Source: Comamonadaceae bacterium CD01 (lineage in GTDB: Bacteria > Pseudomonadota > Gammaproteobacteria > Burkholderiales > Burkholderiaceae_C). From it: a stretch of 44,873 nt of DNA. Shown here piece by piece: positions 11,478-28,959 of the stretch. Both the position numbers and the translations under genes were made by a program. The first letter of the stretch is position 1; every line of letters begins with the position of its first letter. The notes under the pieces were generated by a model. That model saw nothing but the letters and a program-made list of their open reading frames with translations. It ran no database searches and was not told the DNA's origin. The DNA lies in NCBI GenBank assembly GCA_002894305.1, contig PGEI01000014.1, positions 1 to 44,873 of the forward strand. The letters are read 5' to 3'.

Positions 11478-11593
11478 CTCCTTCCCCCTCTGGGGGAAGG
11501 TTGGGATGGGGGCTGGGAGCGCTGGGATCTTGCCGGCACAAAGCGCAAGCGTCGCCGGCCCCCACCCCTCCCTCCCCCAAAGGGGGAGGGGGA
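11478..11593 (+). repeat. Nested-palindrome repeat, copy 2 (complete short form)
   Basis: The clearest short copy. Left hairpin CCTTCCCCCTCTGGGGGAAGG; then GGGATGGGGGC, a variable middle with TTGCCGGCA and GCGTCGCCGGC, then GCCCCCACCCC pairing with the earlier G-run, and a right hairpin CTCCCCCAAAGGGGGAG. The element sits between the crotonase and MaoC genes. No coding function. Confidence 0.85.
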
Positions 11594-15714: not shown

Positions 15715-15741
15715 CTCCTTCCCCCTCTGGGGCTGAGGGAG
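15715..15741 (+). repeat. Nested-palindrome repeat, copy 3 (left fragment)
   Basis: Only the left end is kept: CTCCTTCCCCCTCTGGGG followed by CTGAGGGAG. The junction TGGGGCTGAGGG is the one found in the long copies 5 and 6, so this is a truncated long form. It lies between the acyl-CoA dehydrogenase and CoA-transferase genes. Confidence 0.7.
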
Positions 15742-18454: not shown

Positions 18455-19321
18455 ATGCAACACCACCGCGTCCACGAGGCCTGCTCCTTCCTCTTCGTCC
18501 CCGCCACCCATCCCCAGCGCCTGCCCAAGGCGCTGGCCAGCGGCGCCGACATGGTGATTGCCGACTGGGAGGACGCCGTGGCGCCGGCCGACAAGGCGCG
18601 CGCACGCGGCGCCCTGCTGGAAGCCGCAGGCGCTCTCGACGGTGCGCAGCGCGCGCGCCTGCTGGTGCGCATCAACGCCGAGGGCACGCCCTGGTTTGCC
18701 GACGACCTGCAGGCGCTGGCGCAGCTCACCGCACTGGGCCTGGCCGGCGCCGTGATTCCGAAAGCCGAGCGCGCCGAGACACTGCTGGCCGTGGCGCGCG
18801 CCGCAGGGAGCGGGGCGGCGCTGCTGGCGCTGGTCGAATCCGTGGCCGGGTTGCATGCCGTGGACACGTTGGCCGCCGCGCCCCAGGTCGCGCGCCTGGC
18901 CTTTGGCCACCTGGACTTCCAGGTCGACGCCGGCATGGCCTGCGGCCCGGACGAAGCCGAGCTGCTGCCGATGCGCATGGCCGTGGTGCTGTCCGCGCGC
19001 CGCGCCGGCATGGCCGCGCCCATCGACGGCGTGACCGTGGACACGAAAAATCCCGAGCGCATGACTCTTGATGCCGCACGCGCGCGACGCATGGGCTTTG
19101 GCGGCAAGCTGTGCATCCACCCGGCGCAGGTCGCCCCGCTGCACGCGGCGTTCGACCCGGGCGACGCCGCCGTGGCCCACGCGCAACGCGTGCAGCAGGC
19201 CCTGCAGGCAGCAGGCGGCGGCGTCTGCGTGCTCGACGGCCGCATGGTCGACGCGCCCGTGCTGGCGCAGGCCGAACGAACCCTGGCGCACCACGCAAGG
19301 GCCATGGCGCGCCGCACATGA
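18455..19321 (+). CDS. HpcH/HpaI-family CitE-like lyase, probable (S)-citramalyl-CoA lyase
   Basis: CitE-like TIM-barrel lyase, 288 aa, ATG 18455 preceded by GAGG. It should split citramalyl-CoA to acetyl-CoA and pyruvate with Mg2+. Motifs in order: SFLFVPATHPQRLPKAL (11-27), GADMVIADWEDAV (30-42), LLVRINAEGTPWF with Arg72, ALVESVAGL with the metal-binding Glu128, FGHLDFQVDAG with the second metal ligand Asp154, and GKLCIHPAQV in the C-terminal part. Together with the hydratase and type III CoA-transferase this completes a three-step C5-dicarboxylate route like Ict-Ich-Ccl. The nearest alternatives in the family are malyl-CoA and beta-methylmalyl-CoA lyases. Confidence 0.87.
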   Translation: MQHHRVHEACSFLFVPATHPQRLPKALASGADMVIADWEDAVAPADKARARGALLEAAGALDGAQRARLLVRINAEGTPWFADDLQALAQLTALGLAGAVIPKAERAETLLAVARAAGSGAALLALVESVAGLHAVDTLAAAPQVARLAFGHLDFQVDAGMACGPDEAELLPMRMAVVLSARRAGMAAPIDGVTVDTKNPERMTLDAARARRMGFGGKLCIHPAQVAPLHAAFDPGDAAVAHAQRVQQALQAAGGGVCVLDGRMVDAPVLAQAERTLAHHARAMARRT

Positions 19322-19340
19322 GACCTGCGGATCGCGCCTT

Positions 19341-19530
19341 CACTCCCTCCCCCTTTGGGGCTGAGGGCTGCGGCTCTAGTGGCGCCTGCGCGCAACTGGA
19401 CAGCCCGAAGAGCGGCGGCGTCCCGCCGCCAGCACTGGGGTTGGGGTGGGGGCCAGCGGCGCTTGGGTTCTCTATGCCGGCAAAATGCCTGCGCTCCCGG
19501 CTCCGTCCACCCCCCAAAACGGAAGGGATC
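19341..19530 (+). repeat. Nested-palindrome repeat, copy 5 (long form with inner stem-loop)
   Basis: Long form of the element. After the left arm ending TTTGGGG it has an insert of about 75 bases with an outer stem GGGCTG (19365-19370) / CAGCCC (19401-19406), an inner imperfect stem CTAGTGGCGC / GCGCAACTGG, and a third hairpin GGCGGCGTCCCGCCGCC. The core then resumes with GGGGTGGGGGCC and a degenerate right arm. It fills most of the 248-base gap between the lyase and MFS genes. The stems covary with copy 6. Confidence 0.8.
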
Positions 19531-19569
19531 TGAACGCCGCAGGCATGTAAACCGCCAAAAATCATCAAT

Positions 19570-20838
19570 GTGAATTCTGTCGCTACGCCCCCCTCCTCCG
19601 CCCCCTCCCGCTCCCGCCCGCTGTGGGTCATGCTGCTGGCCCTGCTGTCGGGCTTTGCGCTGAGCCAGTCCTACCGCACCGTCACCGCCATCGTCGCGCA
19701 GGATCTGCAGCACGACTTCGGCCTGTCCGTGCAGGCGCTGGGGGCCTTTGCCGGGCTGTTCGGCCTGTCGTTCGGCGTCGCGCAGCTCTTGATGGGCATT
19801 GCCATGGACCGCTACGGCCTGCGCCGCACGGTGCTGGCGGCCGCGCCGCTGTCGATCGCGGGCGCGGCGCTGTCGGCGCTGGCGCCCGACCATGGCTGGC
19901 TGATGGTCGGGCAGCTGCTGATCGGCGTGGGCTGCTCGCCCGCGTTCCTGGCGTGCACCGTGCTGATCTCGCGCCACTTCCCCAGCGACCGCTTCGCCTT
20001 CTTCTCAGGCCTGAGCCTGGGCATGGGCGGCCTCGGGCTGATGCTGACCGGCACGCCGCTGGCCTGGGTGGTGCAGCACTGGGGCTGGCGCGTGGGCTTT
20101 GGCCTGCTGGCCGGGCTCAGCGCGCTGTCGTGGGTCATCGTCTACGCGCTGGTACGCGAGCCCGAACTGCCGGGCGATGCGCAGCAACCGCGCGAGAGCC
20201 TGCGCCGCTCGCTGCTGGGCCTGCTGGAAATTTTCACGCTGCGCCACACCTGGGGCATCCTGATTCTGGGCATGTCGGGCTACGCGGCCTTTCTGTCGCT
20301 GCGCGGCCTGTGGATGGGCCCGCTGTTGATGAACCGCTTCGGCTTCTCGCTGGTCGACAGCGGCAACGTCGCGCTGGTGCTTTCGGTCATCTCGCTGTTC
20401 GCCCCCGGCAGCTTTGGCCGCATCGACCCCGGGCCGCTGCGCCGGCGCGCCTGGATCGCCAACGCATCACTCGTCATGGCCGGCATGTTTGCCGTGCTGG
20501 CGCTGCTGCAACACGCGGGCGCCGCGGTGGCGCTGATGATCGTGCTGGGCATGGTGTGGGGCTACAGCGTGCTGCAGTACGCCGACGCGCGCGCCTCCTA
20601 CTCCAGCGCGCTCACCGGACGCGCTCTGTCGCTCTACACCATGTCGATGTTCCTGGGCGTGGCGCTGATGCAGTCGGCCACCGGCGCCGTCGCCGCCTGG
20701 GCCGAAACCCAGGAAATCGACCCCTACCGCGCCGTGCTGCTGGCGATTGCACTCTGGCTGGCGCTGGCGTCGATGGCGTTCCGGTTTTTGCCGGCGTCAC
20801 CGCTACTCAAGGCAGCCGCCTCGCCCGACCGACACTGA
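19570..20838 (+). CDS. MFS transporter
   Basis: Major facilitator superfamily permease, 422 aa, about 12 hydrophobic helices in the inner membrane. Recognisable elements are a polar proline- and serine-rich start, TM1 at about 18-38, the loop motif MDRYGLRRTV (about residues 78-87) of the family's GxxxDRxGRR type, and a central loop near 200 with VREPELPGDAQQPRESLRRS. The start is GTG at 19570 with no clear ribosome site; later starts are possible. It follows the C5-acid operon, separated only by repeat copy 5, so uptake of the C5 acid is a reasonable guess, but MFS substrates cannot be read from sequence. It is convergent with the IclR gene. Confidence 0.88.
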   Translation: MNSVATPPSSAPSRSRPLWVMLLALLSGFALSQSYRTVTAIVAQDLQHDFGLSVQALGAFAGLFGLSFGVAQLLMGIAMDRYGLRRTVLAAAPLSIAGAALSALAPDHGWLMVGQLLIGVGCSPAFLACTVLISRHFPSDRFAFFSGLSLGMGGLGLMLTGTPLAWVVQHWGWRVGFGLLAGLSALSWVIVYALVREPELPGDAQQPRESLRRSLLGLLEIFTLRHTWGILILGMSGYAAFLSLRGLWMGPLLMNRFGFSLVDSGNVALVLSVISLFAPGSFGRIDPGPLRRRAWIANASLVMAGMFAVLALLQHAGAAVALMIVLGMVWGYSVLQYADARASYSSALTGRALSLYTMSMFLGVALMQSATGAVAAWAETQEIDPYRAVLLAIALWLALASMAFRFLPASPLLKAAASPDRH

Positions 20839-20854
20839 GCGGAGGGCGCAACCC

Positions 20855-21619
20855 TCAAACCCCCAGCACCCCCTCGACCGAGCGCACCAGCGTGCGCAGG
20901 CGCGGGCCCAGATCGGATTCGAGCTTGCCGTACAGCGGGCTGAACACCGGCACCGACAGCGCGAAGATCCACAGCTCGCTGTCCTGGGGCTGGCTCATCG
21001 GCACGGCAATCGACTCGATCTCGCTGTGCAGGTCGCCGTGGCTGCGGCAAAAACCGTACTGCGCCATGTCTTCGCGCGCGTTCACCAGGCGCTGCTCCAG
21101 CCAGGCGGCGCGCTGCGGGTTGCGTGCCTGCAGGTCGCGCAGGTAGGCCGCGCGCTCGTCCTCGGCCATGCCCAGCAGATAGGCGCGGCCCGTGGCGGTG
21201 CGCGACAGCGACATGGACACGCCCACCTCCTGGCGGAACACCGTGTTGCCCATGCCATTGGCCAGTTCCACCAGGCACAGCTCGCGGCGGTGGCCCACGG
21301 CCAGTTGCACCTGGCCCTCGGTCAGGTCGGCCAGGGCCTGCATGTGGGGGCGGGCGAACTGGCGCAGCGCCATGCGCGTGAGCACGGGCGACGACAGCTG
21401 CAGCAGGCCCAGGCCGGGTACGTACTTGGACAGGCGCTCCGAATAGCGCAGCAGGCCGAGCTCGCACAGCGTCTCGGTCAGGCGAAACAGCGTGGGCTTG
21501 GGCAGGCCGGTCAGATCCATCAGCTCCTTGGCACTGAGCTCCTGGCATTTGTTGGAGAAGCAACGCAGCACGGAAATACCGCGCACCAGGGCGCTGACCA
21601 GTTTGCCGTCCGCTTCCAT
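20855..21619 (-). CDS. IclR-family transcriptional regulator
   Basis: IclR-type regulator, 254 aa from ATG 21619, with an in-frame GTG at 21625. The N-terminal winged HTH covers about residues 7-68, with ELSAKELMDLTGLPKPTLFRLTETL as the helix-turn-helix. The C-terminal ligand-binding domain starts near residue 85 and contains SLSRTATGRAYLLGM, the typical gate to the effector pocket. Members sense small organic acids and control nearby catabolic operons as activator or repressor. It lies 91 bases after the DECR-type SDR and is convergent with the MFS gene. The likely targets are the 21711-29975 beta-oxidation locus or the C5-acid operon; which one cannot be told here. Confidence 0.92.
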   Translation of the reverse strand: MEADGKLVSALVRGISVLRCFSNKCQELSAKELMDLTGLPKPTLFRLTETLCELGLLRYSERLSKYVPGLGLLQLSSPVLTRMALRQFARPHMQALADLTEGQVQLAVGHRRELCLVELANGMGNTVFRQEVGVSMSLSRTATGRAYLLGMAEDERAAYLRDLQARNPQRAAWLEQRLVNAREDMAQYGFCRSHGDLHSEIESIAVPMSQPQDSELWIFALSVPVFSPLYGKLESDLGPRLRTLVRSVEGVLGV

Positions 21620-21710
21620 GTTCACTGTCTATCGATCCCAAAAAGCCTGGATTCTCGCCTGATTCACGTGCCGGCGCGGCTGCGCCAAAGCGCGCGCGCA
21701 GGCCCGGTGC

Positions 21711-22517
21711 TCATGCCCCGTCCCGCGGGACGTAGGACGCGCGCATGTCGCGCCCGCCGCGCAGCGACGAGCCGCCGTCGACCGGGATGACCGCGCCCGT
21801 CACGTAGCCGGCCTGGGGTGACGACAGGAACAGCGCCATGTGGGCGATATCGTCGAGCGTGCCCATGCGCTGCAGCGGCACGCCGGCGACCGCGTCGGCC
21901 AGCGCCTCGGGCGAGGGAGCGAGGCGGCGCATGCCCTCGGTGCCCTCGATCGGCCCGGGCGCGATGGCGTTCACGCGCACGCCCGCCTCGCCCCACTCCA
22001 TGGCCAGCACGCGCGTCATCATGTCGATGCCGGCCTTGGCGGCGCAGGCATGCACCTGGTACATGGTGGGGTTGACGCCCTGCGGCGCCGAGATGTTGAT
22101 GACGCTGGCGCCGGGTTTCTTCAGCATCGGGTAGGCCAGGCGCAGCACGTGGAAGGTGCCGTTCAGGTCGATGTCCACCACGGTCTTGAAGCCATTGGGC
22201 GACAAGTCCTTGGCCGGCGCGATGAAATTACCGGCCGCCCCGGAGACGAGCACGTCAATGTCGCCAAAGCGTTCATGCGCCTGGCGCAGCGCCGCCTCCA
22301 CCGCCGCCGCATCGCGCACGTCGGCGCTGATGCCCAGCGCCTGCGCCCCGAGCGCGCGCAGCCCCTCGGTGGCCTGCTGCACCTTGTCGGGCGAGCGGCT
22401 CATGACGGTGACATGGGCGCCAGCGCGGGCGAACGCCTGGGCAATGCCAAGGTTGATGCCGCTGGTACCGCCGGCGACGAAGACATGGTGGCCTGTGAAG
22501 GAGTGGGTATCGGGCAT
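21711..22517 (-). CDS. SDR-family protein, 2,4-dienoyl-CoA reductase (DECR2) type
   Basis: Short-chain dehydrogenase, 268 aa, resembling peroxisomal 2,4-dienoyl-CoA reductase. The cofactor motif is GGTSGINLGI (16-25). The SDR YxxxK motif is absent: Lys161 is present in YQVHACAAKAG but position 157 is alanine, exactly as in the DECR group. Other DECR features are GAAGNFIAPAKDLSPNGFKT (93-112), DIDLNGTF (115-122), and APGPIEGTEGMRRL. DECR enzymes reduce 2,4-dienoyl-CoA with NADPH to a 3-enoyl-CoA, so the locus may handle unsaturated acids. It starts 9 bases after the stop of the Bug gene and is the last metabolic gene before the IclR regulator. Confidence 0.88.
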   Translation of the reverse strand: MPDTHSFTGHHVFVAGGTSGINLGIAQAFARAGAHVTVMSRSPDKVQQATEGLRALGAQALGISADVRDAAAVEAALRQAHERFGDIDVLVSGAAGNFIAPAKDLSPNGFKTVVDIDLNGTFHVLRLAYPMLKKPGASVINISAPQGVNPTMYQVHACAAKAGIDMMTRVLAMEWGEAGVRVNAIAPGPIEGTEGMRRLAPSPEALADAVAGVPLQRMGTLDDIAHMALFLSSPQAGYVTGAVIPVDGGSSLRGGRDMRASYVPRDGA

Positions 22518-22526
22518 GGCGCGTCC

Positions 22527-23525
22527 TCAGTCGAGCTGCAGCTTCTGGCTGCGGATCAGCTCGCCCCAGTCCTTGCGGTCGCGCTCGACCATCTGCGTGA
22601 ATTGCGCGCTGTCCATGCCGCCGGGCCGGCCACCGAGTTCCTGGTAGCGCTGCACCACGGCCGGATCCTTGAGCTCGGCGATCAGGCCGTCGGTGAGTTT
22701 TTTGACGATCCCGGGCGGCGTCCCGGCGGGCAGGAAGAAACCCATCCAGCCAACCTTGTCGAAGTCCTTCATGCCCAGTTCGGTCATGGTGGGCACGTCG
22801 GGCAGCTCGGGCTCGCGCGTGGCGCCGGTCACGGCCAGGGCGCGTAGCTTGCCGTCCTTGACGTGGACCAGCGAGCCCGTGAGGTTGTCGAACATGAACT
22901 GCGTCTCGCCCGCCACGATGGCCAACGTCGCCGGGGCCGAGCCCCGGTACGGAACGTGCACCACGTCGACCCCCGCGCGCTGGCGAAACAGCTCGCCCAT
23001 CAGGTGCGTGGTCTGGCCCACGCCGGCGGACGAGAACGCCAGCTTGCCGGGCTCCTTCCTGGCCTCGGCGATCAGATCTGCCAGACTTTTGATGGGGGAC
23101 TTCACGGGCACCACCAGCACGTTGGCGAACGAGATCATGTCGGTCAGCGCGATGAAGTCGCCCGGCTTGTAGTTGAGCTTCTGGTAGGCCGTGTAGTTGA
23201 TGGCATTGGAGCCGGTGTTGCCCACCAGTACGGTGTAGCCGTCGGGCTGCGCGCGCGCCACCAGGTTGGCGCCCAGCATGCCGCCCGCGCCGGGCTTGTT
23301 GTCCACCACGATGGGCTGGCCCAGGCGCTCGCCCAGGCGTTGCGCCAAAAAGCGCACCGGCGTGTCGGTGGTGCCGCCGGCCGCGCCCGGCACGACGAAG
23401 GTGATGGGGCGCTGGGGCCAGGCGGCGTCCGCCCAGGCGGCCGGGGCCGCCATCAGGGCGCCCAAGCCCAGCAGAGTGCCGGCTGCGGCCAGGCGCAACG
23501 CGCGGCGGCGGTTGTAGAGGGGCAT
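22527..23525 (-). CDS. Bug/TctC-family binding protein
   Basis: Periplasmic Bug (TctC) receptor, 332 aa. ATG 23525 follows AAGGAG with good spacing. The N-terminus (MPLYNRRRALRLAAAG) has an arginine triplet before a hydrophobic segment and a cleavage site near AWA-D at residues 31-33, so a Tat-like signal is possible. Motifs: WPQRPITFVVPGAAGGTTD, IVVDNKPGAGGMLGANLVA, SSAGVGQTTHLMGELF, VVHVPYRGSAPATLAIV. It lies inside the thiolase, HSD10-type SDR, Bug, DECR-type SDR operon, so its ligand is probably the acid broken down by this locus. No TctAB present. Confidence 0.92.
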   Translation of the reverse strand: MPLYNRRRALRLAAAGTLLGLGALMAAPAAWADAAWPQRPITFVVPGAAGGTTDTPVRFLAQRLGERLGQPIVVDNKPGAGGMLGANLVARAQPDGYTVLVGNTGSNAINYTAYQKLNYKPGDFIALTDMISFANVLVVPVKSPIKSLADLIAEARKEPGKLAFSSAGVGQTTHLMGELFRQRAGVDVVHVPYRGSAPATLAIVAGETQFMFDNLTGSLVHVKDGKLRALAVTGATREPELPDVPTMTELGMKDFDKVGWMGFFLPAGTPPGIVKKLTDGLIAELKDPAVVQRYQELGGRPGGMDSAQFTQMVERDRKDWGELIRSQKLQLD

Positions 23526-23624
23526 GTGTGTCTCCTTGTGCTTGGGCGGCGCGACGGCCGCCTGCGCAATTCACTCGAAAAAGTGAGCTGCTGACGCTTT
23601 ACGGATAAGCGCGAAGGCCGGATG

Positions 23625-24392
23625 TCACCGCGGCTGCATGCGGATCGCCCCATCCAGGCGAATCGTCTCGCCATTGAGCATGGGGTTCTCCAGGATGTGC
23701 AGCGCGGTCATCGCGTATTCGGACGGGTGGCCCAGGCGCGCCGGGTTGGGTACGGAGGCGGCCAGCGACTGGCGGATGTTGTCGGGCAGCTTGGCCAGGA
23801 TGGGCGTGTCGAACAGGCCCGGGGCGATGGTGCACACGCGGATGAACTTGGTCGCCAGGTCGCGCGCGGCGACGATAGTCATGCCGATCACGCCGGCCTT
23901 GGACGATGCGTAGGGAATCTGGCCGATCTGCCCCTCGTAGCCCGCGACCGATGCGGTGAGCACGCAGGCGCCGCGCTCGCCGTCGATCGGCTCGTTCTTG
24001 GCCATGGCGACGGCCGCCAGGCGCAGCGTGTTGAAGCTGCCGATCTGGTTGACGCGGATGATGTTGGTGTATTTCTCCAGCGATCCGGCGCTGCCGTCCT
24101 TCTCGATCAGGCGCACCGGGCCGCCTATGCCGGCGCAATGCACGAGCGCGCGGAAGTTGCCGAAGGCTTCGGCCGCCGCAACGGCCTGCTGCATCTGGGC
24201 CTCGTCGGAGACGTCGGCCTTGACGTAGCGCAGGCGGCCGGCGTACTTCTGTTCCATCGCCTGGCCGCGCTCGTCGTTCAGGTCGACGGCGACGACATTC
24301 AGCCCGCGCTCCAGCAGCGCGATGGCCGTGGCCTCGCCCAGGCCCGAGACGCCGCCGGTGACGAGGGCGGTCATTCCTTGTTGCAGTTTCAT
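23625..24392 (-). CDS. SDR-family 3-hydroxyacyl-CoA dehydrogenase, HSD17B10 type
   Basis: Short-chain dehydrogenase of 255 aa closely resembling mitochondrial type 10 hydroxysteroid dehydrogenase (2-methyl-3-hydroxybutyryl-CoA dehydrogenase). The cofactor motif is VTGGVSGLG (11-19) and the catalytic residues are Ser148, Tyr161 and Lys165 (YASSK). The C-terminus TIAPGLFDTPILAKLP, LGHPSEYAMTALHILENP and LNGETIRLDGAIRMQPR is the HSD10 hallmark. The enzyme oxidises (3S)-hydroxyacyl-CoA, including 2-methyl-branched forms, with NAD. It sits between thiolase (upstream, across repeat copy 7) and Bug genes, so it supplies the dehydrogenation step before thiolysis. Confidence 0.93.
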   Translation of the reverse strand: MKLQQGMTALVTGGVSGLGEATAIALLERGLNVVAVDLNDERGQAMEQKYAGRLRYVKADVSDEAQMQQAVAAAEAFGNFRALVHCAGIGGPVRLIEKDGSAGSLEKYTNIIRVNQIGSFNTLRLAAVAMAKNEPIDGERGACVLTASVAGYEGQIGQIPYASSKAGVIGMTIVAARDLATKFIRVCTIAPGLFDTPILAKLPDNIRQSLAASVPNPARLGHPSEYAMTALHILENPMLNGETIRLDGAIRMQPR

Positions 24393-24420
24393 GTTTACTC
24401 CTTTTGGGGTCCGTGTTCGG

Positions 24421-24545
24421 CTCCTTCCCCCTCTGGGGGAAGGTGGGGATGGGGGCCTGGCTTGCGCTACCCAGGTATGTGCGGGCGCGAGCGCCGCCGG
24501 CCCCCACCCCTGCCCTCCCCTCCCCTCCCCCAGAGGGGGAGGGAG
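24421..24545 (+). repeat. Nested-palindrome repeat, copy 7
   Basis: Complete short form: CTCCTTCCCCCTCTGGGG with GGTGGGGATGGGGGCC, a variable middle, GCGCCGCCGGCCCCCACCCC, a CCTCC run and the hairpin CTCCCCCAGAGGGGGAG. It occupies nearly the whole gap between the thiolase stop and the HSD10-type SDR start. Confidence 0.85.
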
Positions 24546-24557
24546 TCATGCGCAAAA

Positions 24558-25736
24558 TTACAGTCGTTCGATGATGGTGGCGTTGGCCATGCCGCCCGCC
24601 TCGCACATCGACTGCAGGCCGTAGCGCCCGCCGCTGTCTTCCAGCGCATGCAGCATGGTGGTCATCAGGCGAATGCCGGATGCACCCAGCGGGTGACCCA
24701 GGGCGATGGCGCCGCCGCGCGGGTTCAGGCGTTCGCCGTCGGCTTTGAGCTCTTTCTGCCAGGCCATGGGCACGCTGGCGAAGGCCTCGTTGATCTCGTA
24801 GTGGTGGATGGCGTCCAGCGTCATCTTCGCCTTGGCCAGCACGCGCTGGGTGGCGGGGATGGGGGCGGTCAGCATGTAGAGCGGGTCGTCGCCCACCACG
24901 TCAAACGCGACGAAGCGCGCGCGCGGCGTGAGGCCCAGCTGCAGCGCGCGCTCCTCGCTCATGATGAGCATGGCGCTGGCGCCGTCGGTCATCTGCGAGG
25001 CGTTGCCGGCCGTGGTGCTCCATTGGATCTGCGGGAAGCGCGCCGACAGCTCGTCGTTCTGGAACACGGCCTTGAGGCCGGCGAGCTTTTCCACCGTGGT
25101 GCTGGCACGGATGGTCTCGTCCTGCGTCACGCGGCCAGCGGGGGTGTCGATGCCGACGATCTCGCGGGAAAAGCGGCCGGCCGACTGGGCGGCATGGGCG
25201 CGCTGGTGCGAGCGTGCGGCGTAGCCGTCCAGGTCGGTGCGGGGCAGCCCCCACTTGGCGGCGACGAGGTCGGCCGATACACCCTGGCCCACCAGGCCGG
25301 GCGCGTAGCGCGCGTCGAAGCGCGCGCCAGTGGTGTTCTTGCCCATGCGCGAGCTGCCCATGGGCACGCGGCTCATCGATTCCACACCGCAGGCAATGAC
25401 GATGTCCTGCGCGCCGGCCATGATGGCCTGGGCCGCAAAGTGCACCGCCTGCTGGCTGGAGCCGCATTTGCGGTCGATGGTGGTCGACGGCACATGCGTG
25501 GGCAGGCCGGCGGCCAGCCAGGCCAGGCGGCCGGGCGTGCCGGCCTGCTCGCCGGCCTGGCTCACGCAGCCGCAGATCACGTCATCGACCTGGCCGGGGT
25601 CGATCTTGCTCCGCTCCACCAACTGCTGCAGCACCTGCGACAGCAGATCCACGGGATGCAACTCGGCCAGCGCGCCATCAGGCTTGGCCCGGGCCATGGG
25701 ACTGCGAATGGCGTCGACGATGACTGGATTCCTCAT
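24558..25736 (-). CDS. Acetyl-CoA C-acyltransferase (thiolase)
   Basis: Thiolase of 392 aa. ATG 25736 is preceded by GGAG at five bases; an in-frame GTG at 25742 would overlap that site, so the ATG is preferred. The nucleophilic cysteine is Cys91 in DRKCGSSQQAV; His348 is in GHPLGASG and Cys378 in CEAGGMAN; NEAFA is present. The CEAGGMAN ending is a variant of the usual C-x-G-G-G-x-G. It cleaves a 3-ketoacyl-CoA made by the HSD10-type SDR downstream. First gene of a minus-strand operon divergent from the acyl-CoA ligase at 25944. Confidence 0.93.
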   Translation of the reverse strand: MRNPVIVDAIRSPMARAKPDGALAELHPVDLLSQVLQQLVERSKIDPGQVDDVICGCVSQAGEQAGTPGRLAWLAAGLPTHVPSTTIDRKCGSSQQAVHFAAQAIMAGAQDIVIACGVESMSRVPMGSSRMGKNTTGARFDARYAPGLVGQGVSADLVAAKWGLPRTDLDGYAARSHQRAHAAQSAGRFSREIVGIDTPAGRVTQDETIRASTTVEKLAGLKAVFQNDELSARFPQIQWSTTAGNASQMTDGASAMLIMSEERALQLGLTPRARFVAFDVVGDDPLYMLTAPIPATQRVLAKAKMTLDAIHHYEINEAFASVPMAWQKELKADGERLNPRGGAIALGHPLGASGIRLMTTMLHALEDSGGRYGLQSMCEAGGMANATIIERL

Positions 25737-25749
25737 ATTCACTCCATAC

Positions 25750-25787
25750 GGTTAATGAAACGAATGATCCATTAAAACCAATTTCAT
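25750..25787. promoter_or_regulatory. Overlapping inverted repeats in a divergent promoter region
   Basis: Two dyads overlap upstream of the thiolase gene: GGTTAATG (25750-25757) with CATTAAAACC (25770-25779), a match except for a two-base bulge, and ATGAAA (25755-25760) with TTTCAT (25782-25787). The 207-base region between the divergent thiolase and ligase is locally AT-rich. A regulator such as the IclR protein could bind here, but no family consensus is recognised. Confidence 0.3.
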
Positions 25788-25943
25788 GGCTGTTAGTTTG
25801 TCCTTAACAGCGTGTTTACCCCATGCTTCTTGAACTGTTTGCCTGAAAGAATTCACTGGAGTATCAGATTTACGAGACATGAAGTCCGTATTTCCCGAAT
25901 GCGCCACCATCCCGGCGGCGCGTGCAAACCACGGGTGACAGGC

Positions 25944-27491
25944 ATGCAGGATTTCTTTGGCCGCGCCGCAGCGGCCCCCGATCGGACGGTGGTGTTCATG
26001 GCCGACCAGGGCCGCGACACCACCGCCGGCGCGCTGGCGCAGCAGGCGCAGCAGATGGCGCAATGGCTGGCGGCCCAGGGGCTGCAGGCAGGCGAGCGCT
26101 TTGCCGTGCTGCTGGAGAACCGCGTCGAGATCCTGGCGCTGGCGCTGGCCGCGCGCGAGGCCGGCCTGTACGCCGCCGTGCTCAGCACCCACCTGACGGT
26201 CGACGAGGTGGCCTACATAGTGCAGGACTGCGGCGCGCGCCTGGTCGTGGCCTCCGCCAAGACCCTGCCCCAGCTCGAAGGCTGCACCCTGCCCTGCTGG
26301 AGCGTGGACGAGGCAGCGCCCCAGGCGCCATCGCTGCATGCGGCACTGGCCGCGCTGCAAGGCCCGCCGGTGGATTTTTCCGACCGGCCGATCGGGCGCG
26401 ACCTGCTGTATTCCTCTGGCACCACGGGCCGGCCCAAGGGTGTGCTCAAACCGCTGTGGCCCGCCCAGCTGCGCGGCCAGGCAGACCCCGAGGCCGAAGG
26501 CACGGCGCAGCGCCTGGGCATGGGCGAGGACACGGTCTACCTGTCGCCCGCGCCGCTGTACCACGCCGCGCCGCTGCGCTACACGCTGCGCGTGCTCGAA
26601 CTCGGTGGGCAGGCCGTGATCATGGAGCGCTTCGATGCTGCAGGCGCGCTGGCCCTCATCGAACGCCACCGCGTCACCCACAGCCAGTGGGTGCCCACGA
26701 TGTTCGGGCGCCTGCTGAAACTGCCCGAGGAGGTGCGCAAGCGCTACGACCTGTCCAGCCACCGCATGGCCATACACGCCGCCGCGCCCTGCCCGGTTCA
26801 TGTCAAGCACGCGATGCTCGACTGGTGGGGCGACATATTGCTGGAGTACTACGCCGGCTCCGAGGGCTGCGGCACGACGATGATCAATTCCGCCGAATGG
26901 CGGCAGCGCCCCGGCTCGGTGGGCCGCGCCACGACGGGCCAGTTGCACATCGTCGACGACCAGGGCCAGGAACTGCCCGCGGGCGAGATCGGCCAGGTGT
27001 ATTTCTCGGGCGGCGGGCAGTTCAGCTACTTGAACGACCCCGAGAAGACGCGCCAGGCCATCGACGAGCGCGGCTGGGTGACCTATGGCGACATAGGCCA
27101 TGTGGACGCCGAGGGCTATCTGTTCCTGAGCGACCGGCGCGCCGACCTGATCCTGTCGGGCGGCGTCAACCTCTACCCGCAGGAGATAGAGAACGCGCTG
27201 GCGCGCCACCCCGGCGTGCAGGAGCTGGCCGTGGTCGGCGTGCCCGACGCCGACTTTGGCGAGGTGCCGCTGGCCGCCGTCGTGCTGCGCCCGGGCGCCG
27301 AGGCCACGCAGCAGACGGCCCGCGCCATTGCCGACCAGGCCGCCGAGGTGCTCGCGCGCCTGAAGCTGCCGCAGCGCATGGTCTTCGTCGACGCCCTGCC
27401 GCGACTGGAGACCGGCAAGCTGCTGCGCCGCAAGCTCAAGGAGCAGTACCGCGACGCGCCGCAGGCCGGATTCGCCCTGAGGGACTCTTAA
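25944..27491 (+). CDS. AMP-dependent acyl-CoA synthetase/ligase
   Basis: ANL-superfamily acyl-CoA ligase, 515 aa from ATG 25944; the open frame upstream to 25812 has no family similarity and the ribosome site is weak. Motifs: LLYSSGTTGRPKGVLKP (residues 154-170), the YYAGSEGCGTTMI A5 region, GWVTYGDIGHVDAEGYLFL, DLILSGGVNLYPQEIENAL and the catalytic Lys492 in LETGKLLRR. It activates a carboxylic acid for the LCAD-like dehydrogenase downstream and the divergent thiolase and SDR genes. The sequence is of the fatty-acid/bile-acid-CoA ligase type, substrate not determined. Confidence 0.9.
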   Translation: MQDFFGRAAAAPDRTVVFMADQGRDTTAGALAQQAQQMAQWLAAQGLQAGERFAVLLENRVEILALALAAREAGLYAAVLSTHLTVDEVAYIVQDCGARLVVASAKTLPQLEGCTLPCWSVDEAAPQAPSLHAALAALQGPPVDFSDRPIGRDLLYSSGTTGRPKGVLKPLWPAQLRGQADPEAEGTAQRLGMGEDTVYLSPAPLYHAAPLRYTLRVLELGGQAVIMERFDAAGALALIERHRVTHSQWVPTMFGRLLKLPEEVRKRYDLSSHRMAIHAAAPCPVHVKHAMLDWWGDILLEYYAGSEGCGTTMINSAEWRQRPGSVGRATTGQLHIVDDQGQELPAGEIGQVYFSGGGQFSYLNDPEKTRQAIDERGWVTYGDIGHVDAEGYLFLSDRRADLILSGGVNLYPQEIENALARHPGVQELAVVGVPDADFGEVPLAAVVLRPGAEATQQTARAIADQAAEVLARLKLPQRMVFVDALPRLETGKLLRRKLKEQYRDAPQAGFALRDS

Positions 27492-27804
27492 AACAATGGC
27501 TACCTGCGCTTACTTGATAAGCGTTGCAGCCTGGTTTGACGTGAATATGCACACACTCCTACGCACGCCCGCCTTACTCCTTCCCCCTCTGGGGCTGAAG
27601 GCCGCGGCTCCAGTTCCGCCAATGCGGAACTGGACGGCCTGAAGAGCGGTGGCGTCCCGCCGCCAGCACCGAGGTGGGGATGGGGGCCAGCCATGCCAAG
27701 AAAGGCCTTGCCCTTGGCTCAAGCGCCGCCGGCCCCACCCCTGCCCTCCCCCAGAGGGGGAGGGAGAAACAGCCGCTGTTCAGCCAAGTTCTTCAACCCC
27801 ATCA
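27492..27804. other. Intergenic gap filled mainly by repeat copy 6
   Basis: This 313-base gap between ligase and acyl-CoA dehydrogenase carries repeat copy 6 at 27577-27766. The rest (27492-27576 and 27767-27804) shows nothing recognisable and no Shine-Dalgarno in front of the dehydrogenase start. Confidence 0.6.
27577..27766 (+). repeat. Nested-palindrome repeat, copy 6 (long form with perfect inner stem-loop)
   Basis: Best-preserved long copy. After CTCCTTCCCCCTCTGGGG the insert forms an outer stem AGGCCG (27599-27604) / CGGCCT (27635-27640), enclosing a perfect 10-bp stem CCAGTTCCGC (27610-27619) / GCGGAACTGG (27624-27633) with loop CAAT. A third hairpin GGTGGCGTCCCGCCGCC follows, then GGTGGGGATGGGGGCC, a variable middle, GCCGGCCCCACCCC and the right hairpin CTCCCCCAGAGGGGGAG. 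Insert length is the same as in copy 5. Confidence 0.85.
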
Positions 27805-28959
27805 ATGAGTCCCACCATGCAAGACCTGATCACCCGCACCATCTACCGCGAAGACCACGAGCAATTGCGCGAGCAGGCGCGGCGCTTTTTCGAACGTGAA
27901 GTCGAACCCTTCCACGACCAGTGGGAGCGCGACGGCATCGTGCCCAAGGAGGTCTGGCGCAAAGCCGGGCGCGAGGGGCTGCTCAACCCCATGCTGCCCG
28001 AGCCCTACGGCGGCGGCGGCGACTTCGGCCATGCCGCAGTGCTGCTCGAAGAAATCGCCCGCGCCGGCGCCAGCGGCCTCGGCTTTCCGCTGCACTCGGA
28101 CATCGTCGCGCCGTACATCTTTGCCTATGGCAGCAAGGAGCAGAAAGACCGCTGGCTGCCGCGCATGGCCGCGGGCGAGCTGATCGGCGCCATCGCCATG
28201 ACCGAGCCCGGCGCGGGCAGCGACCTCAAGTCCGTGCGCACCACGGCCAGGCGCGAGGGTGATGAATACGTCATCAACGGCAGCAAGACCTTCATCACCA
28301 ACGGCATCAACAGCGAGATCGTCATCGTCGTCGCCAAGACCGCGCCCGAGCTGGGCGCCAAGGGCGTGTCGCTGATCGTCGTCGAGGACGGCACGCCCGG
28401 CTTCAGCAAGGGCCGCAAGCTGGAGAAGATCGGCCTGATGGCGCAGGACACCTCCGAGCTGTTCTTCGACAACGTGCGCGTGCCCGTGGGCAACCTGCTG
28501 GGCGAGGAGAACCTGGGCTTCAAGTATTTGATGAAGGAGCTGGCCCAGGAGCGCCTGGTGGTGGCGGTGCGCGCCGCCGCGTCGGTCGAGGCGTTCCTGC
28601 AGAAAACCGTGGACTACACGCGCGAACGCAAGGCCTTCGGCCAGAGCGTGTTCGAGTTCCAGAACACGCGCTTCAAGCTGGCCGAAGCCAAGGCCCAGGC
28701 CACCATGCTGCGCGTCTTCGTCGACGACTGCATGGCGCTGCACATGCGCCGCGAGCTCACGCCCGAGCGCGCGGCCATGGTCAAGCTCAACGCCACGGCG
28801 CTGCAGAACAAGCTGCTCGACGAGTTCCTGCAGTTGCACGGCGGCTACGGCTACATGACCGAATACCAGGTGGGCCGCGCCTGGACCGACGCGCGCATCG
28901 GCCGCATCTACGGCGGCAGCGACGAGATCATGAAAGAGATCATCGCCCGCACGCTGTGA
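27805..28959 (+). CDS. Acyl-CoA dehydrogenase, long-chain (LCAD/ACADL)-like
   Basis: FAD-dependent acyl-CoA dehydrogenase, 384 aa from ATG 27805 (ATG 27817 is an alternative; neither has a clear ribosome site). It oxidises acyl-CoA to trans-2-enoyl-CoA, passing electrons to ETF. Motifs: AIAMTEPGAGSDLKSVRT (129-146), YVINGSKTFITNGINSE (155-171), QLHGGYGYMTEYQVGRAW and IYGGSDEIMKEIIAR at the C-terminus. As in mammalian LCAD the C-terminal site is IYGGx rather than IYEGT, and the catalytic base should be Glu249 in LAQERLVVA. Upstream lies the ligase, downstream (23 bases) a Bug gene, so the three form one unit interrupted by repeat copy 6. Confidence 0.92.
   Translation: MSPTMQDLITRTIYREDHEQLREQARRFFEREVEPFHDQWERDGIVPKEVWRKAGREGLLNPMLPEPYGGGGDFGHAAVLLEEIARAGASGLGFPLHSDIVAPYIFAYGSKEQKDRWLPRMAAGELIGAIAMTEPGAGSDLKSVRTTARREGDEYVINGSKTFITNGINSEIVIVVAKTAPELGAKGVSLIVVEDGTPGFSKGRKLEKIGLMAQDTSELFFDNVRVPVGNLLGEENLGFKYLMKELAQERLVVAVRAAASVEAFLQKTVDYTRERKAFGQSVFEFQNTRFKLAEAKAQATMLRVFVDDCMALHMRRELTPERAAMVKLNATALQNKLLDEFLQLHGGYGYMTEYQVGRAWTDARIGRIYGGSDEIMKEIIARTL

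What the first reader, a model, noticed from the sequence alone, without database searches (positions are those of the whole stretch)
19341..27766. Long repeat copies 5 and 6 share an inner stem-loop with three compensatory base-pair changes
The inserts at 19361-19435 and 27594-27668 align without gaps. In the outer stem, pair A-T (27599/27640) becomes G-C (19365/19406) and C-G (27603/27636) becomes T-A (19369/19402). In the inner 10-bp stem a C-G pair becomes G-C. Other changes are in the loop, are one G-T wobble, or are one mismatch. Compensatory changes in three pairs between only two copies suggest the structure is kept by selection or by its mobility, as RNA or single-stranded DNA. The insert sits at a fixed point (after TGGGG) inside a short palindromic element, so it behaves like a cassette.
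Basis: seen in the sequence. Interest (0 to 1): 0.72.

Follow-up and report, generated by a model that had tools for sequence, protein, structure and literature searches.

The report
Folded mini-element inside bacterial palindromic repeats
A 76-letter piece of DNA without a gene of its own, whose folded shape is kept by paired changes, sits at one exact point beside hairpins in several kinds of short repeats of a bacterial family, and comparison of related species shows that it was inserted there.

Summary
In detail: the named base changes are real (second insert shifted by one base); three double changes arise in 0.1% of random placements. The suggested test with many copies was run: 21 of 24 pairs in three helices show double-sided changes (79 diverse copies, 0 of 500 shuffles); in my R-scape-like test all 11 significant pairs were helix pairs (96 copies). 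G.T outnumbers A.C 69 to 20, so one strand is the folding strand. The 76-nt cassette occurs in 118 of 399 family genomes sampled, directly behind a short CCCC-GGGG hairpin in 105 of 150 copies (4.7% of 1664 control sites), in several unrelated host palindromes. Three orthologous loci show the host with and without cassette, each with the same junction (GGGG|GAAG to GGGG|CTGA..CACC|GAG). It is an inserted, structure-conserved mini-element. What moves it, and whether DNA or RNA acts, is open. It is probably the beta-proteobacterial repeat element (BRE) named in 2011 (PMC3110155) with no known function, but no BRE letters were available. Orthologous cassettes diverge less than their flanks, so function or homogenisation in place is not excluded.

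The parts
19361..19436 (+). cassette copy 1 (76 nt, CTGA..CACT)
   Evidence: CM hit 19342-19453 to R1 with 115.1 bits, 19357-19437 to R2 with 88.6 bits
27595..27670 (+). cassette copy 2 (76 nt, CTGA..CACC)
   Evidence: CM hit 27576-27687 to R1 with 128.7 bits
19361..19410 (+). helix 1 of copy 1: 19361-19362, 19365-19369 with 19402-19406, 19409-19410; GA/GA between the two parts (possible tandem sheared G.A, inferred)
   Evidence: 7 of 7 pairs with double-sided changes in A4
19376..19399 (+). helix 2 of copy 1: 19376-19385 with 19390-19399
   Evidence: 7 of 10 pairs with double-sided changes
19414..19430 (+). helix 3 of copy 1: 19414-19420 with 19424-19430
   Evidence: 7 of 7 pairs with double-sided changes
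27595..27644 (+). helix 1 of copy 2: 27595-27596, 27599-27603 with 27636-27640, 27643-27644
27610..27633 (+). helix 2 of copy 2: 27610-27619 with 27624-27633
27648..27664 (+). helix 3 of copy 2: 27648-27654 with 27658-27664
19342..19453 (+). host palindromic arm of copy 1 (19342-19360 and 19437-19453), interrupted by the cassette
27576..27687 (+). host palindromic arm of copy 2 (27576-27594 and 27671-27687), interrupted by the cassette
27717..27766 (-). short arm without cassette, inverted partner of copy 2's arm (REPIN-like pair)
15716..15740 (+). truncated long copy: arm plus first bases of the cassette only
11478..11513 (+). example of a short (empty) host arm

Best explanation
The insert is a miniature, gene-less mobile cassette of about 76 nt, probably a Comamonadaceae branch of the BRE repeats. 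One strand (GGGG-CTGA...CACC) folds into a three-helix shape with nearly invariant unpaired stretches (GCGGCTCC, GGAC, GAA, the first base of the last loop). It inserts right 3' of the GGGG strand of CCCC-n-GGGG hairpins in REP/REPIN-like palindromes, replacing GAAG by CTGA..CACC-GAG. SHOWN: structure kept by covariation; one folding strand; precise insertion; several host repeats; presence/absence at orthologous sites. INFERRED: an enzyme acting in trans recognises the folded single strand (more likely DNA than RNA) and joins it to the hairpin foot, so selection for being moved keeps the shape; the host repeat then supplies further targets.
For: Covariation: 21 of 24 pairs with double-sided changes, 97.3% of cells paired, 0 of 500 shuffles reach any of the five measures, slid structures fall to 31-41% paired; own R-scape-like test 11 of 11 significant pairs in structure with 96 copies, 12 of 12 with the 56 rows from loci L082 on, outside the window's genus. 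Strand: G.T 69 cells against A.C 20, tree events 60 against 18; still 29 against 8 where both neighbouring genes lie on the other strand (55 copies). Target: C4-(2-8)-G4 hairpin directly before the cassette in 105 of 150 flanked copies against 4.7% of 1664 control GGGG sites in the same loci; the looser test CCC..GGG within 60 nt gives 142 of 150 but 60% of controls, so it says little. Several host types; in some the cassette is inverted relative to the host but still abuts a GGGG. Insertion: L090 locus filled in 1 of 30 species, host present without cassette in 20, no host in 6, unresolved 3; L234 locus of 10: filled 2, partly deleted cassette 1, host empty 2, no host 3, unresolved 2; L221 locus of 10: filled 1, host empty 2, no host or synteny 7. 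Local host letters are kept to within about 4 nt on the left and 3 nt on the right; for example GAGCCGCGCAGCGGCTC at L221 matches its empty orthologues and none of the other 19 loci fetched with it, though one other filled copy of the genus, L092, has it too. In G207 five copies share one score; the four of them that were read are identical.
Against: No enzyme found: the only Y1 transposase gene in the window's genome is flanked by other, GTAG-type repeats (by eye). Orthologous cassettes differ by 3.4% while the host DNA beside them differs by 11.9% and 9.7% (14 pairs, not all independent), and only 9 of 46 differences fall in the 31 family-conserved columns (18.3 expected if uniform, 3.7 from family rates): partial constraint in place, homogenisation, or bias because copies were found by similarity. 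RNA from a BRE region was seen in B. pertussis (PMC3110155).
Confidence: 0.58

Rival explanations
1. A structured RNA: the cassette is transcribed (own promoter or read-through) and its folded RNA binds a protein or regulates; spread is secondary.
For: Covarying helices plus invariant unpaired bases; G.U-tolerant strand; cassette more conserved in place than its flanks; PMC3110155 reports 80-nt and about 200-nt transcripts at a BRE locus of B. pertussis; PMC2864571 lists an ambiguous Burkholderiales-1 motif.
Against: The folding strand is antisense to the nearest right-hand gene in 79 of 99 placed copies, and in 55 both neighbours lie on the other strand (simple codon-usage gene caller); no sigma-70-like promoter in window 19200-28000 (GC-rich promoters may be missed); no Rfam match at gathering score in the window and none convincing on 12 loci; many precise absences at orthologous sites.
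Confidence: 0.24
2. No mobility now: one old insertion into a host repeat, then spread by gene conversion and by copying of the filled host repeats.
For: The three filled loci carry the same one-base loss (GAG for GAAG); cassettes at orthologous loci are less diverged than their flanks; host arms supply homology; one other filled copy (L092) shares the letters beside the L221 junction.
Against: Filled sites keep local host letters to within about 4 nt and 3 nt of the junction; the cassette sits in host types that share little but the G-rich hairpin and in both orientations to the host.
Confidence: 0.13
3. Template switching between hairpin arms makes the compensatory changes without any selection.
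For: The arms are quasi-palindromes, and such mutations are known (recalled, no call).
Against: Unpaired columns are among the most conserved (GGCTCC, GGAC, GAA); G.T against A.C asymmetry is not expected; 18 of 20 orthologous pairs (two misaligned ones left out) show 18 breaks, 7 wobbles, one other double change and no compensatory double change.
Confidence: 0.03

Closest known systems
Beta-proteobacterial repeat element, BRE (Hot et al. 2011, PMC3110155; section 14 and passages read)
   Same: 75-91 bp, GC-rich, dispersed mainly between genes, Comamonadaceae (Polaromonas 29 and 4 copies, Delftia 13, Acidovorax 4 and 1, Rhodoferax 4), tandem copies in Bordetella, not co-oriented with replication, mobility suspected; found by a structure-aware search
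   Different: The parts read describe no position inside hairpin repeats, no empty sites, no base-pair covariation, no folding strand. Letters not available here, so identity is likely but untested.
GTAG-23 REP elements in T. roseum palindromes (Di Nocera et al. 2013, PMC3733652; section 7 and passages read)
   Same: A small repeat sits in small palindromes CCGSSCC(n3,4)GGSSCGG that occur in hundreds of copies in that genome
   Different: A tagged REP; here three helices, no GTAG or CGTC tag at the ends, entry at the hairpin foot
REPINs and RAYT transposases (PMC3116915; passages read)
   Same: The host arms of the window are inverted pairs of palindromes; compensatory changes were noted in the REPIN hairpin there
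   Different: Those lie in the spacer between the two REPs; here a separate cassette interrupts an arm, and no RAYT gene flanked by these arms was seen in the window's genome
ERIC elements with about 70-bp internal insertions (recalled; one search found no paper on it)
   Same: Short palindromic repeat with a site-specific internal insert
   Different: Enterobacteria, no known homology; not tested

Membership tests
BRE | Sequence similarity to Bordetella BRE | not testable with these tools
   No BRE letters in the text read; supplement look-ups are 0; no named Bordetella genome was reached
BRE | Length 75-91 bp, dispersed, several copies per genome, in Comamonadaceae | tested here: met
   76 nt; 2-17 copies in 8 single-contig genomes; 118 of 399 family genomes
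BRE | Tandem arrays in some genomes; no co-orientation with replication | tested here: inconclusive
   Five weak tandem matches 159 nt apart in G686, another family of the order; 9 of 12 and 5 of 10 copies on the lagging side
REP (GTAG/CGTC tagged) | 20-40 bp hairpin with a GTAG or CGTC tag at one end | tested here: not met
   Cassette has three helices and ends CTGA..CACC
REP/REPIN | Linked to a RAYT (Y1) transposase gene flanked by the same repeat | tested here: not met
   The only PF01797 match in the window's genome is flanked by a GTAG-type repeat (by eye); other genomes not searched for it
MITE | Terminal inverted repeats and target duplication | tested here: not met
   Three filled/empty loci show no simple duplication, one A fewer
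Rfam 15 families | Covariance model match | tested here: not met
   None in the window at gathering score; nothing convincing on the cassettes of 12 loci up to E 5

The most novel reading that the evidence does not exclude
A new class of gene-less mobile element that moves as a folded single strand and is joined to the foot of hairpins, thus living on other small repeats (REPIN-like arms) across a bacterial family, with an unknown enzyme in trans; relatives outside the family near tRNA and tmRNA genes may show an older target.
Probability: 0.3. Interest if true: 0.82.

Novelty: new variant of a known kind. Interest (0 to 1): 0.6.

Why it matters
How REP-like and other tiny repeats spread in bacteria is largely inferred. 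Here a nested cassette gives exact empty sites, an exact junction, a named folding strand and a covariance model, so the mobilising enzyme and the acting form (ssDNA or RNA) can be sought directly. If it is BRE, it gives that unexplained repeat a structure, a target and a mode of spread.

Tried and rejected
Not fruitful: orthologous sites within the window's genus (matches outside the repeat only about 66-79% alike and scattered, no shared site seen); a rigid DNA pattern across the phylum (0 of 200, but it also misses the window's own copies, so it says nothing); plasmids and phages: no match covered more than 36% of a query; of those on plasmids, three were read as empty host repeats, a fourth lies inside an annotated transposase ORF, the rest were not read; viral contigs (3 and 0 stretches, the 3 carry host and cassette). 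Literature searches: no listing or passage that I saw shows this cassette inside palindromes; BRE appeared only.

Corrected on re-check: 'CCC..GGG within 60 nt' (142 of 150) is weak, since 60% of control sites pass; the short-hairpin count replaces it. The first hand count of replication sides was replaced. The first G.T/A.C count (129 to 16) used an RNAalifold structure with a misplaced third helix; one search replaces it. The first gene caller made 14 improbable 'inside gene' calls and gave 71 of 86 right-hand genes on the other strand; one search replaces it. In one search the two pairs with L379 slip at an inserted base and were left out of the stated counts (20 pairs in all: 32 breaks, 7 wobbles, 2 compensatory, 1 other double). 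One search used 14 of the 20 pairs; one search used 15. The paralogue comparison at few differences does not discriminate. In the test on A1 2 of 4 significant pairs lay outside the structure: one extends helix 1, one is an R-R correlation in the host arm. In one search the stretch shown for L302 was not the match, so that hit is unexamined. Whether single-contig genomes start at dnaA was tested by a Walker-motif look (found in 1 of 10), so GC skew was used instead.
Full report
What is there. The two stretches in the window are 112-nt long forms of a palindromic arm that also occurs in a short form of about 36 nt. Short and long forms share CTCC-Y-TCCCCC-TYT-GGGG and GGG-R-TGGGGGC; the long form carries 76 extra bases, CTGA..CACC, right after GGGG. 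Arms are often paired head to head, as in REPINs (27576 with 27766; 11478 with 11592; 16927 with 17042; 24421 with 24545; 32836 with 32940). The genome is a relative of Comamonas badia: named hits with the same repeat come from Comamonas badia DSM 17552 and Comamonas sp. SCN 65-56, whose contig lengths equal those of G004 and G002, two genomes of the window's genus.

Check of the observation.

Many copies. 47 copies, from the window's genus, from two unnamed-genus MAGs (one of them, JAFEER, is G383 of genus g5) and one from G022, were aligned; RNAalifold gave 16 pairs with double-sided changes. The covariance model R1 matched 118 of 399 genomes of the family, 59 of 141 genera (at most 9 candidates per genome scored). 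In many of them only model positions 16-95 match, so the cassette stands in other surroundings there. With 96 distinct cores aligned by MAFFT without structure, my own R-scape-like test (null alignments by re-placing substitutions along a FastTree tree; not R-scape itself) found 11 significant pairs, all in the helices; the 56 rows from loci L082 on gave 12 of 12. With 139 cores, 10 of 12 lay in the RNAalifold structure and the other two extend its helices. On the 47-copy alignment it was 2 of 4. On 79 diverse copies (A4) the three-helix structure has 21 of 24 pairs changed on both sides and 97.3% of cells paired, against 31-41% when slid; no shuffle of 500 reaches it. Unpaired bases are conserved: GGCTCC, GGAC, GAA and the first loop base of helix 3 hardly vary. 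Columns 6-9 TGAR facing 50-53 YGAA suggest tandem sheared G.A pairs (inference).

Which strand. In the 22 pairs tested, G.T cells number 69 and A.C cells 20; gains on a tree 60 and 18. The strand written here is therefore the one that folds. This fits RNA or ssDNA. The nearest right-hand gene lies on the opposite strand in 79 of 99 placed copies (one more could not be placed), and in the 55 copies with both neighbours on the opposite strand the asymmetry persists, 29 to 8. Transcripts of those neighbours would carry the other strand; an own promoter is not excluded.

Where it sits. A C4-(2-8)-G4 hairpin directly precedes 105 of 150 copies with flanks, against 4.7% of 1664 control GGGG sites of the same loci. 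By a simple motif sort of 152 copies, 43 are in the window's CTCC arm, 5 in a CGCCCTCGCCCC arm, 45 in a host with a GGAACCGGC hairpin, 23 in a GGGCCGCCCC host, 7 and 4 have those host motifs on the right (cassette inverted relative to the host), 23 other, 2 without flanks. Empty hosts of the GGAACCGGC kind lie on named plasmids of Comamonas testosteroni, Diaphorobacter and Variovorax (by eye).

Insertion shown by relatives. In genus g110 the gene neighbourhood of one filled copy (L090) was followed in 30 species: filled in 1 (G411), host without cassette in 20 (4 of them with another insert, 1 truncated), no host in 6, unresolved 3. G625, whose neighbouring gene is 99-100% identical, is empty. 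A second locus (L234) in 10 genomes: filled in G411 and G625, partly deleted in G218, empty host in G640 and G643, no host in 3, unresolved 2. A third (L221) in 10: filled in G625, empty in G411 and G117, the other 7 without host or synteny. Each time GGGG|GAAG became GGGG|CTGA..CACC|GAG, while host letters a few bases away stayed those of the locus. Many BLAST matches to hosts elsewhere end at this point (query 497, 551; not read one by one). Homologous gene conversion with such short tracts is unlikely but not excluded.

Does it work in place? Results are mixed. Twenty orthologous filled pairs gave, without two misaligned ones, 18 broken pairs, 7 wobbles, no compensatory double change and one other double change: the remaining changes look unselected. 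Yet in 14 such pairs the cassette differs by 3.4% against 11.9% and 9.7% for the adjoining host DNA and 8.0% further right, and 9 of 46 differences (15 pairs) hit family-conserved columns, between the uniform and the family expectation. Homogenisation, partial function, or the bias of finding copies by similarity can each explain this.

Replication. Judged from GC skew, the folding strand is on the lagging side in 9 of 12 G207 copies and in 5 of 10 G221 copies, copies near a skew change left out. No general bias.

Range. A second model (R2) matched 12 of 399 genomes of the order, 6 of them outside the family. One (G951) is a clear cassette after CCCCCGAGGGGG. In four further genomes outside the family (G686, G803, G833, G899) weaker matches lie near a tRNA-His, tRNA-Met or tmRNA gene; the sixth was not examined.

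Known? The most similar description is BRE (PMC3110155, section 14 and passages read): 75-91 bp, GC-rich, in Bordetella and Comamonadaceae, mobility suspected, function unknown, with 80-nt and about 200-nt RNAs at one locus. Taxa, length and copy number agree, but no BRE letters were available, so membership is likely, not tested. Burkholderiales-1 of PMC2864571 (passages read) has no Rfam number in that table and could not be compared. The precedent for a small repeat nested in palindromes is GTAG-23 in T. roseum (PMC3733652, section 7 read).

Verdict. A real, structure-conserved, precisely inserted mini-element; its target and strand are shown here; its enzyme and acting form are not.

Noticed in passing
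L199, L203, L205, L206 (orthologues of the L090 locus): A different insert of about 158 nt sits in the other hairpin of the same host repeat in 4 of 30 species, so these hosts attract more than one kind of insert.
   Followed up: no
L301 1039-1611, L303, L304, L305, L311 (outside the family): Divergent cassette relatives lie next to tmRNA, tRNA-His and tRNA-Met genes; at the tmRNA the 3' end is repeated (25 nt, 192 nt apart), and in G686 a 159-nt unit with cassette and tRNA start is repeated in tandem.
   Followed up: partly
L145 about 245-440 and 1338-1450: Two near-identical filled host repeats about 1 kb apart, inverted; the first seems to lie inside a CoA-transferase-like coding sequence (by eye).
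   Followed up: no
L009 around 1500-2100: The only Y1 transposase gene found in the window's genome is flanked by GTAG-type repeats unlike the window's arms.
   Followed up: partly
window 15716-15740: A long copy cut off after the first bases of the cassette, just before a gene start.
   Followed up: no
A1 columns 11, 102 and 110 (host arm): The host arm has two subfamilies: Y in CTCC-Y-TCC goes with R in GRGG and R in GGG-R-TGGGG (102-110 significant, the rest by eye).
   Followed up: partly
L126, L127, L128, L129, L130, L131, L132, L133, L136, L139, L264, L267, L276: A cassette subfamily that ends in an extra hairpin GGCCTGCAAGGC; mostly inverted in its host where that could be told, but forward in L276.
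   Followed up: partly
G002:C25:403976-416782 (L036): Four filled copies within 13 kb, a local cluster.
   Followed up: no
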